This document shows positions 16,001-19,000 of a DNA stretch of 64,000 nt, piece after piece. The DNA comes from Antennarius striatus (lineage: Eukaryota > Chordata > Actinopteri > Lophiiformes > Antennariidae), in the NCBI RefSeq assembly GCF_040054535.1, contig NC_090783.1:171001-235000 (forward strand), written 5' to 3'. The position numbers were made by a program, and so were the translations under genes. The notes under the pieces were generated by a model. That model ran no database searches. It was given only the letters and a program-made list of their open reading frames with translations, and was not told where the DNA came from. Every line of letters begins with the position of its first letter. The first letter of the stretch is position 1.

Positions 16001-19000
16001 CAGGAGGGGGCGGAGCACCAGGAGGTGCGGCAGCGCCTGGACGGCATGGAAGAGCGCTACCAGGAGGTGGCGCAGCTGAGCCGCGGCAGGACACAGGCGC
16101 TGCAGGAGGCACTGGCGCGCTACAAGCTGCTCAGCGAGGCCGACGCCCTCCAGCTCTGGATCGACGAGAAGGAGCAGTGGCTGGTCGCCATGGAGACCCC
16201 CCACAAGCTGGAGGACCTGGAGGTGGTGCAGCACAGGTAGGGCGGGTGGGACACCCGGGGGGACGGTGCCCCCTGCTGGTCTCCTCCCGCCGCTACTTCC
16301 TGTTTGTGTCTCAGGTTTGAGAGTCTGGAGGCGGAGCTGAACCTCCAGGCGTCCCGCGTCGCCGTGGTGAACCAGATCGCCCGTCAGCTGACGCACCACG
16401 GCCCCCCCAGCGACACGGACATCAGGGCGCAGCTGGACCACCTGAACACCCGGTAGGAGCACCCCCACCAGCTGACCCACCACCACCTACCCCAGGGGGG
16501 GCTGGGTCGGCCCCCTCCGGGCTGCAGACACTTCCTGTCTGGGGGAGTTGCCCGTTACACTGACCACGCCCTGTTCTCCCTGCAGGTGGAGCCACTTCCG
16601 GGCCCTTCTGGACCAGAAGAAGGAGTCCCTGCAGGCGGCGCTGCGGGTCCAGAACTACCACCTGGACTGCAATGAGACCCGGTCCTGGATCAGGGAGAAG
16701 ACCCGGGTCATCCAGTCCACCCAGGAGCTGGGCAACGACCTGGCGGGCGTCTTGGCGCTGCAGCGCAGGCTGACTGGGATGGAGCGCGACCTCGCCGCCA
16801 TCGAGGTCAAGCTGGACGACCTGCGAAGGGAGGCGGGGCGGCTGGGGGCGGAGCATCCAGACCAGAACGAGGCCCTCGGGGGCCGTCTGGCTGAGATCGG
16901 CGCCGTCTGGGAGGACATGAAGAACGCCCTGAGGGCCCGCGAGGAGTCGCTGGGCGAGGCCCGGAAGCTGCAGCAGTTCCTGCGCGAGCTGGACGACTTC
17001 CAGGCGTGGCTGTCGCGCACGCAGACCGCCATCGCCTCCGAGGACACGCCCACCTCGCTGGCGGAGGCGGAGCGGCTAATGGCGCAGCACCGCGGCATCA
17101 GGAACGAGGTGCGCGACTACGAGGAGGACTACCAGAGGATGAGGGACATGGGCGACCTGGTGACCCGGGGCCAGACCGACGCCCAGCACATGTTCCTGCG
17201 CCAGCGGCTGCAGGCGCTGCACGCCGGCTGGAACGAGCTCACCCGCATGGGCGACAACCGGCAGCACCTGCTCACCCAGTGCCACGCCCACCAGGTGTTC
17301 CTCAGGGACTGCAAGCAGGCCGAGGCCTTCCTCAGCAACCAGGTAACGCCCGCTTTGACGGGACCGGGTCAGGACGGGGTCCAGCTGAGAACCGGGTGTT
17401 CATGCTAACGGGTGTTCATGCTAACGGGTGTTCATGCTAACGGGTGTTTATGCTAGCGGGTGTTTATGCTAGCGGGTGTTTATGCTAGCGGGTGTTTATG
17501 CTAGCGGGTGTTCACGGTCTATCTCGCCCGCTGTGACCCCTACAGGAGTACGTCCTGGCCCACACGGAGATGCCCCCCACCCTGCCGGGCGCTGAGGGGT
17601 CCATCAGGGCGCAGGAGGATTTCATGACCACGATGGACGCCAACGAGGAGAAGGTCAGCGCCGTGGTGGAGGCGGGGCGGCGGCTCGCCCGCGACGGCAA
17701 CATCAACGCCCAGCGCATCCTGGAGAAGACCTCCTCCATCGACGACAGGTAGCCCCACCCTATGTAGCATCATGCTAACGTTAGCGTCACAGGTTCTGAC
17801 GGGTTCTGGTTGCTGTCCAGGCGTCAGAAGAACCGGGAGGCGGCCGTGGAGCTGCTGATGAGGCTGAAGGACAACCGAGACCTTCAGAAGTTCCTGCAGG
17901 ACTGCCAGGAGGTGGGTCCTCCCACCGGTTAGCATCCGCACTAACCTGTACTGTTAGCGTTGATGCTAACCCATCGTGTTTGCAGCTGACGCTGTGGGTG
18001 GACGAGAAGATGCTGACGGCTCAGGACCGGACCTACGACGAGGCTAGGGACCTCCACAGCAAGTGGCTGAAGCACCAGGCCTTCATGGCCGAGCTGCGCT
18101 CCAACAGGGAGTGGCTGGACCAGGTCCAGAAGGTGGGTCAGGTCCAGAAGGTGGGTCAGGTCCAGAAGGTGGGTCAGGTCCAGGAGGTGGGTCAGGTCCA
18201 GGAGGTGGGTCAGGTCCCGGAGGTGGGTCAGGTCCAGGAGGTGGGTCAGGTCCAGGAGGTGGGTCAGGTCCAGGAGGTGGGTCAGGTCCAGGAGGTGGGT
18301 CAGGTCCAGGAGGTGGGTCAGGTCCAGGAGGTGGGTCAGGTCCAGGAGGTGGGTCAGGTCCAGGAGGTGGGTCAGGTCCAGGAGATGGGTCAGGTCCAGG
18401 AGGTGGGTCAGGTCCAGGAGGTGGGTCAGGTCCAGGAGGTGGGTCAGGTCCAGAAGGTGGGTGAGGTCCAGAAGGTGGGTCAGGTCCAGGAGGTGGGTCA
18501 GGTCCAGGAGGTGGGTCAGGTCCAGGAGGTGGGTCAGGTCCAGGAGGTGGGTCAGGTCCAGGAGGTGGGTCAGGTCCAGGAGGTGGGTCAGGTCCAGAGG
18601 CTGGACTAGGTCCCCATGGGGTCCTTCAGCTGCTAGCTTGTTCATGCTACTGCTAACAGTAGCCTTATTAGCTCACTAGCCTTGTGTTTATTAGCAGGTA
18701 TACATAGCTAGCATTAGTAAGCGCTAATTTGCTCACTAGCTAACGTTAGCGACAGATCTGTGTGTGTAAAGCAGTTTCGTGTATGCTAGCAGTGAGCTAA
18801 TGGAGAGCTAGTTAGTCGTTAGCATGTGGCTAACGGCTGCTTACTGCAGGACGGCGCGCTGCTGGTGTCGGAGAAGCCGGAGACGGAGGCGGTGGTGACG
18901 GAGAAGCTGGCGGCGCTGCACGCCATGTGGGCGGAGCTAGAGGCCACCACGCAGACCAAAGCGCAGTGTCTGTTCGACGCCAACAGGGCGGAGCTCTTCA

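What the first reader, a model, noticed from the sequence alone, without database searches (positions are those of the whole stretch)
18119..18600. Spectrin exon 18 splice donor amplified about 27 times in an open 18-base frame
The minisatellite unit is exactly exon end plus donor (CAGGTCCAGAAG|GTGGGT). Every unit offers the same 5' splice site in the same phase, and the frame stays open, so use of donor n would insert n-1 copies of a VGQVQE-like hexapeptide between spectrin repeats. Either the first donor is strongly preferred or the protein has a length-variable linker. I know of no described locus with so many tandem functional-looking donors.
Basis: partly seen in the sequence, partly recalled or inferred. 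Interest (0 to 1): 0.75.

Follow-up and report, generated by a model that had tools for sequence, protein, structure and literature searches.

The report
Minisatellite repeats a splice donor site
In a beta-spectrin gene of what looks like a fish, the last 12 bases of an exon and the first 6 of its intron are repeated head to tail about 26 times, so the intron begins with a row of copies of its own splice signal; the first copy is probably the one used, and a human gene with the same layout is already known.

Summary
At 18121-18588 there are 26 head-to-tail 18-bp units. Each is the last 12 bases of coding exon 18 of an sptbn1-like beta-spectrin gene plus the first 6 bases of its intron; 25 of 26 keep the donor GT, and the frame stays open to a TAG at 18607. 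An exact two-unit search of the 548-Mb assembly hits only this array. Five of five paralogous exons end at the homologous codon with no array across the donor, so donor 1 is ancestral. It is joint-strongest: 10.2 bits, against 8.6 for 20 of the other 24. For tandem donors of equal strength the first wins (PMC6783452, section 7 read). The junction lies inside a spectrin repeat, not between repeats. I conclude that the array is mostly silent intron, tolerated because the exon-proximal donor wins; no transcript was seen. It has a precedent: human IFI6/6-16 (Turri 1995; title and one citing passage seen). Three other donors in the window are crossed by arrays with at least 9 exonic bases (two in this gene, one in the next), against 0 of 67 acceptors.

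The parts
17986..18132 (+). coding exon 18 of the sptbn1-like gene, ending ...WLDQVQK
   Evidence: AG at 17984-17985, GT at 18133, both shared with paralogs; homologous exon ends at the same codon in 5 of 5 paralogs
18133..18138 (+). donor 1, AAG|GTGGGT, inferred to be the donor in use
   Evidence: 10.17 bits, 80th percentile of 144 homologous donors of six beta-spectrin-like genes
18121..18588 (+). 18-bp minisatellite, 26 whole units, consensus CAGGTCCAG(A/G)AG|GTGGGT, 25 with donor GT
   Evidence: exact two-unit match found only here in the assembly
18589..18606 (+). degenerate 27th unit without donor
18607..18609 (+). first in-frame stop (TAG) after the array
18133..18849 (+). intron when donor 1 is used
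18850..19113 (+). next coding exon ([12 protein letters not shown]...)
10144..10366 (+). array crossing the donor of the first coding exon (donor 10162, CAG|GTAGGC); 6 donor copies at 40, 40, 36, 36, 36 bp
22491..22693 (+). array crossing donor 22500 of the same gene; 7 copies of AC(A/G)G|GTGAGT at 29 then 27 bp
14611..14673 (+). short array starting 1 base before the GT of donor 14612

Best explanation
This is a donor-crossing minisatellite: an 18-bp stretch holding the exon end and its 5' splice site expanded in tandem to 26 copies in an apparently intact beta-spectrin gene. Splicing most likely goes on from donor 1. It is the homologous site, it is joint-strongest, and among equal tandem donors the exon-proximal one wins; the other 24 donor copies then leave with the intron. 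The array is thus a nearly neutral by-product of a segment rich in tandem repeats, with at most minor leakage to donors 2 and 3, which would add 6 or 12 residues inside a spectrin repeat. Shown here: anatomy, homology of donor 1, site scores, no second locus with two exact units. Inferred: use of donor 1, neutrality, leakage.
For: Five of five paralogous exons end at the homologous codon and no array crosses their donor (one, C13b, has an unrelated 4-bp repeat 19 bases past its donor). The gene model joins into one open frame through its first 29 exons and breaks only past the uncertain 30th. Donor 1 scores 10.17 bits, units 2, 3, 19 and 20 the same, the other 20 only 8.62. PMC6783452, section 7: with both tandem 5' sites made consensus the first was predominantly used, with no such order effect for acceptors. 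Extra units lower the Spectrin match from 55.6 to 49.1 and 47.2 bits. In two genes of this window arrays run into the exon at 5 of 66 donors (4 with at least 9 exonic bases) and at 0 of 67 acceptors.
Against: No transcript was seen. U1 pairing energies do not separate the two site classes (-9.6 and -9.7 kcal/mol), so the preference for donor 1 rests on position and on the frequency matrix. Donors 2 and 3 are identical to donor 1 over nine bases. In IFI6 two downstream units are reported as used (passage in PMC4526556), so some leakage is plausible. The 20 GAG sites are ordinary in strength (52nd percentile). PMC6783452 also says the first-site rule can be broken by sequence context. The donor-acceptor asymmetry is borderline (P 0.05 to 0.09 for the difference).
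Confidence: 0.8

Rival explanations
1. The array is a working length-variable cassette: several donors are used, so spectrin carries 0 to n copies of VGQVQ(K/E), varying between tissues or individuals.
For: 18 bp keeps frame; no stop until 18607; 25 of 26 GT kept. Later sites score like ordinary donors, 52nd or 80th percentile. IFI6 is reported to use two downstream units (passage).
Against: The insert falls inside one spectrin repeat and the Pfam score drops. No donor-crossing array in 5 of 5 paralogs. Homogeneous units (98%) show recent spread, not selection; the open frame is expected in about 79% of shuffles. First-donor rule.
Confidence: 0.1
2. The array acts in cis as an intronic enhancer: many U1-binding, G-rich units recruit U1 or G-run-binding proteins and strengthen use of donor 1 or slow intron removal.
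For: 25 U1-pairing sites at -9.6 or -9.7 kcal/mol; GGTGGGT in 25 of 26 units; predicted RNA folding more stable than 100 of 100 shuffles, z -6.3.
Against: No test; donor 1 already scores high; five of five paralogs keep this junction without an array across it; periodic sequence tends to fold on itself anyway.
Confidence: 0.07
3. Assembly artefact: copy number or the array itself is wrong.
For: Only one assembly could be examined.
Against: Variant units at defined places (AAG in 1-3, 19, 20; CCG in 6; ATGGGT in 15; GAG start in 20) and an exact exon junction argue for a real array; the count may differ between alleles.
Confidence: 0.03

Closest known systems
Human IFI6 (6-16, G1P3) minisatellite, Turri, Cuin and Porter 1995, NAR 23:1854 (paper not held; title seen in reference lists; one citing passage in PMC4526556)
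   Same: [quoted passage not shown] the citing passage says two downstream repeat units are used as donors, giving three mRNA species.
   Different: Another gene and animal; unit 18 bp here. From memory (no call): IFI6 has 26 repeats of a 12-nt unit resembling the donor consensus, starting near the end of exon 2. Use of downstream units is not shown here.
Short tandem donors (GYNGYN and similar), PMC1779574 (search listing) and PMC2423196 (passages)
   Same: Competing 5' splice sites a few bases apart at one exon.
   Different: Two overlapping sites, mainly 4 bases apart, not an array of 25 at 18-bp spacing.
Tandem genomic duplication of AGGT segments as a source of introns, PMC4974935 (search listing with start of abstract)
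   Same: Tandem duplication of a segment that holds splice-site sequence.
   Different: That is a route to a new intron; here an old donor of an old intron is multiplied.

Membership tests
Minisatellite providing multiple splice donors (IFI6 type) | Array begins in the exon end and runs into the intron | tested here: met
   12 exonic bases, then units to 18588
Minisatellite providing multiple splice donors (IFI6 type) | Each unit carries a donor-like site | tested here: met
   25 of 26 units with GT, 8.62 or 10.17 bits
Minisatellite providing multiple splice donors (IFI6 type) | More than one unit is used in transcripts | not testable with these tools
   no transcript data held
Minisatellite providing multiple splice donors (IFI6 type) | Copy number varies between alleles | not testable with these tools
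   one assembly only
Beta-spectrin, sptbn1-like | Spectrin repeats across the junction, of beta-chain kind | tested here: met
   Pfam PF00435 1e-27, 2 stretches. PDB 8iah: the alpha chain ranks first by whole-sequence E-value (2.9e-83, many repeats summed), but the best single stretch is to the beta chain (176.9 bits, against 69.1 to alpha)
Beta-spectrin, sptbn1-like | Intact reading frame across exons with GT-AG ends | tested here: met
   open to residue 2119 of the model; a stop arises after the uncertain exon near 24003, so the last four exons were not joined in frame
Beta-spectrin, sptbn1-like | Orthology to sptbn1 rather than another beta-spectrin | tested here: inconclusive
   closest paralog and same neighbour gene on C11; the name sptbn1 and the synteny with EML6 are recalled; no tree built

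The most novel reading that the evidence does not exclude
Donor sites, but not acceptor sites, can be multiplied by minisatellites without harm, because 5' splice-site choice is 'first come, first served'. The natural record of this would be more arrays crossing donors than crossing acceptors: here 5 of 66 donors and 0 of 67 acceptors in two neighbouring genes, with up to 25 donors at one exon. If general, repeat-rich genomes hold many natural tests of the first-donor rule.
Probability: 0.35. Interest if true: 0.6.

Novelty: new member of a known kind. Interest (0 to 1): 0.42.

Why it matters
It is a natural experiment with 25 near-identical competing 5' splice sites on one exon. Reading which ones are used would measure positional preference in splicing far beyond two-site reporters, and would show whether a spectrin repeat tolerates added hexapeptides. 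The pattern in the two genes (arrays enter exons at a few donors and at none of the 67 acceptors found) suggests a simple rule for where minisatellites may grow. The locus itself is otherwise probably an ordinary by-product of a repeat-rich segment.

Tried and rejected
Rejected: an insert 'between spectrin repeats'. Rejected: enrichment of arrays at donors. With arrays shifted along the two genes (2000 shifts), about 17 donors and 18 acceptors would be crossed by at least 9 exonic bases by chance, and 4 and 0 are; so both are avoided, acceptors more. Difference in favour of donors: P 0.09 (9 bases) or 0.05 (1 base); Fisher 4/66 against 0/67 P 0.058, and 6/66 (also counting 14612, where the array starts 1 base before the GT, and 35755, where it starts at the GT) P 0.013. 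Rejected as evidence of function: open frame. Considered: repeat copies writing into the exon end, since 3 of the last 4 residues differ from the C11 paralog against 10 of 49 overall (P 0.023, chosen after seeing it); left open. Sub-telomeric cause: the window starts 171 kb from the contig end and is 31% tandem repeat against 2-14% in five paralog regions, but the 10 kb just before the window is 13%, C8 at 0.5 Mb 32%, the C11 EML flank 16-24% and C8 at 12 Mb 13%, so position alone does not explain it. The comparison with paralogs, 4 of 32 donors crossed against 0 of 112 (P 0.002), is confounded by repeat density. A first gene model had stops from wrong exon ends and was corrected. Dropped rows: the donor at 24003 was left out as uncertain (32 of 33 donors of the gene kept); 6 of 40 EML matches gave no usable donor and 6 of 40 no usable acceptor, and the EML junctions are heuristic; region C13b gave only 7 donors. 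A genome-wide count of tandem CAGGTGAGT or CAGGTAAGT triplets did not complete.

Full report
What is there. The window lies at G000:C8:171001-235000 of a 548-Mb, 42-contig assembly. No call names the organism; that it is a fish is my inference from genome size and the set of spectrin duplicates. From 18121 there are 26 whole copies of a unit with consensus CAGGTCCAG(A/G)AGGTGGGT and a degenerate 27th; shuffled sequence gives 0.02 such matches on average against 26. An exact two-unit search of the whole assembly found 15 places, all inside this array; diverged copies elsewhere would not show in that search.

The gene. Stop-to-stop frames of the window were matched to five regions of the same genome that came up with the exon. 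Shared GT and AG sites gave a 34-exon model from an ATG at 10020, open to residue 2119; the break there reflects an unresolved exon near 24003-24284. The exon with the array is the 18th coding exon. Pfam finds Spectrin repeats. In the PDB the best single stretch is to a spectrin beta chain, 8iah (176.9 bits, whole-sequence E 2.3e-72), although the alpha chain of the same entry ranks first because many repeats add up. The C11 region has the same neighbour, an EML-like gene (one exon matches EML1, 4ci8, E 4.8e-05). The names sptbn1 and EML6 are from memory.

Which donor is old. In five of five paralogs the exon ends at the codon homologous to donor 1, followed by a GT donor, and no tandem array crosses it; in C13b an unrelated 4-bp repeat starts 19 bases past the donor. 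Donor 1 (AAG|GTGGGT) scores 10.17 bits on a matrix made from 144 homologous donors of six beta-spectrin-like genes, the 80th percentile. Units 2, 3, 19 and 20 score the same; 20 units with GAG score 8.62 bits, the 52nd percentile; unit 15 has lost its GT. The other GTs inside the array score below 4 bits, apart from one TGGGTGAGG (5.9 bits) where units 19 and 20 meet. U1 pairing energy is -9.6 or -9.7 kcal/mol for both classes, so it does not discriminate. The matrix contains donor 1 itself and 31 others of this gene.

What use of later donors would do. 18 bp keeps frame, so donor n adds n-1 hexapeptides. The junction falls near position 61 of the 105-position Pfam Spectrin profile (interpolated from the match ends), that is inside one repeat (helix B by general knowledge, not tested by structure), and one or two units lower the score from 55.6 to 49.1 and 47.2 bits; it remains above the family cut-off of 29.9. 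Four units leave the following repeat as the best stretch. Reading through the whole array meets TAG at 18607.

Mechanism. In a reporter library, when both tandem 5' sites were consensus the first was predominantly used, and order did not matter for acceptors; sequence context could break the rule (PMC6783452, section 7 read). With donor 1 both first and joint-strongest, the simplest account is that splicing is unchanged and the rest of the array is intron. Leakage to donors 2 and 3, identical to donor 1 over nine bases, is possible. None of this was seen in transcripts.

The wider pattern. Two more donors of the same gene, 10162 and 22500, are crossed by arrays that hold 6 and 7 copies of the donor; donor 14612 by 1 base; one donor of the EML gene, 40433, is duplicated once with 17 exonic bases; and at EML donor 35755 an array starts exactly at the GT. 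Over the two genes 5 of 66 donors and 0 of 67 acceptors are crossed. By shifting arrays, far more of both would be crossed by chance (17.8 and 18.8), so arrays avoid exons and avoid acceptors most (P 0.0005 for acceptors; P 0.05 to 0.09 for the difference). In five paralog regions 0 of 112 donors and 0 of 113 acceptors are crossed, but those regions hold fewer repeats. This fits tolerance at donors, and is not proof.

What is known. [quoted passage not shown] a citing paper on IFI6 says two downstream repeat units are used as donors (passage). The paper itself is not held. Ten library searches were answered (three of them found no paper); in their listings, which cover open-licence papers only and at most 20 rows each, I saw no report of this array or of a general donor-crossing rule.

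Verdict. Real, well formed, probably without consequence for the protein; a new member of a known kind, with a testable general rule behind it.

Noticed in passing
33953-34816: 41.6 copies of a 21-bp unit with CAG|GTGAAA (8.8 bits), about 250 bases past the nearest exon match of the EML-like gene; a larger row of donor-like sites not attached to a known exon.
   Followed up: partly
35755-36259: 28-bp array that starts exactly at the GT of an EML exon donor; 10 exact copies of GTAGGCACAGGT.
   Followed up: partly
40416-40494: EML exon donor TCG|GTGAGT duplicated once with 17 exonic bases, 38-bp unit.
   Followed up: partly
19686-20267: An intron filled almost end to end by a 27/81-bp minisatellite, starting 8 bases after the donor and ending 9 before the next exon.
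   Followed up: no
20853-21831: TG dinucleotide array of about 980 bp ending 4 bases before an acceptor of the spectrin gene.
   Followed up: no
18100-18620: Predicted RNA folding of the array is more stable than 100 of 100 shuffles (z -6.3); may only reflect periodic sequence.
   Followed up: no
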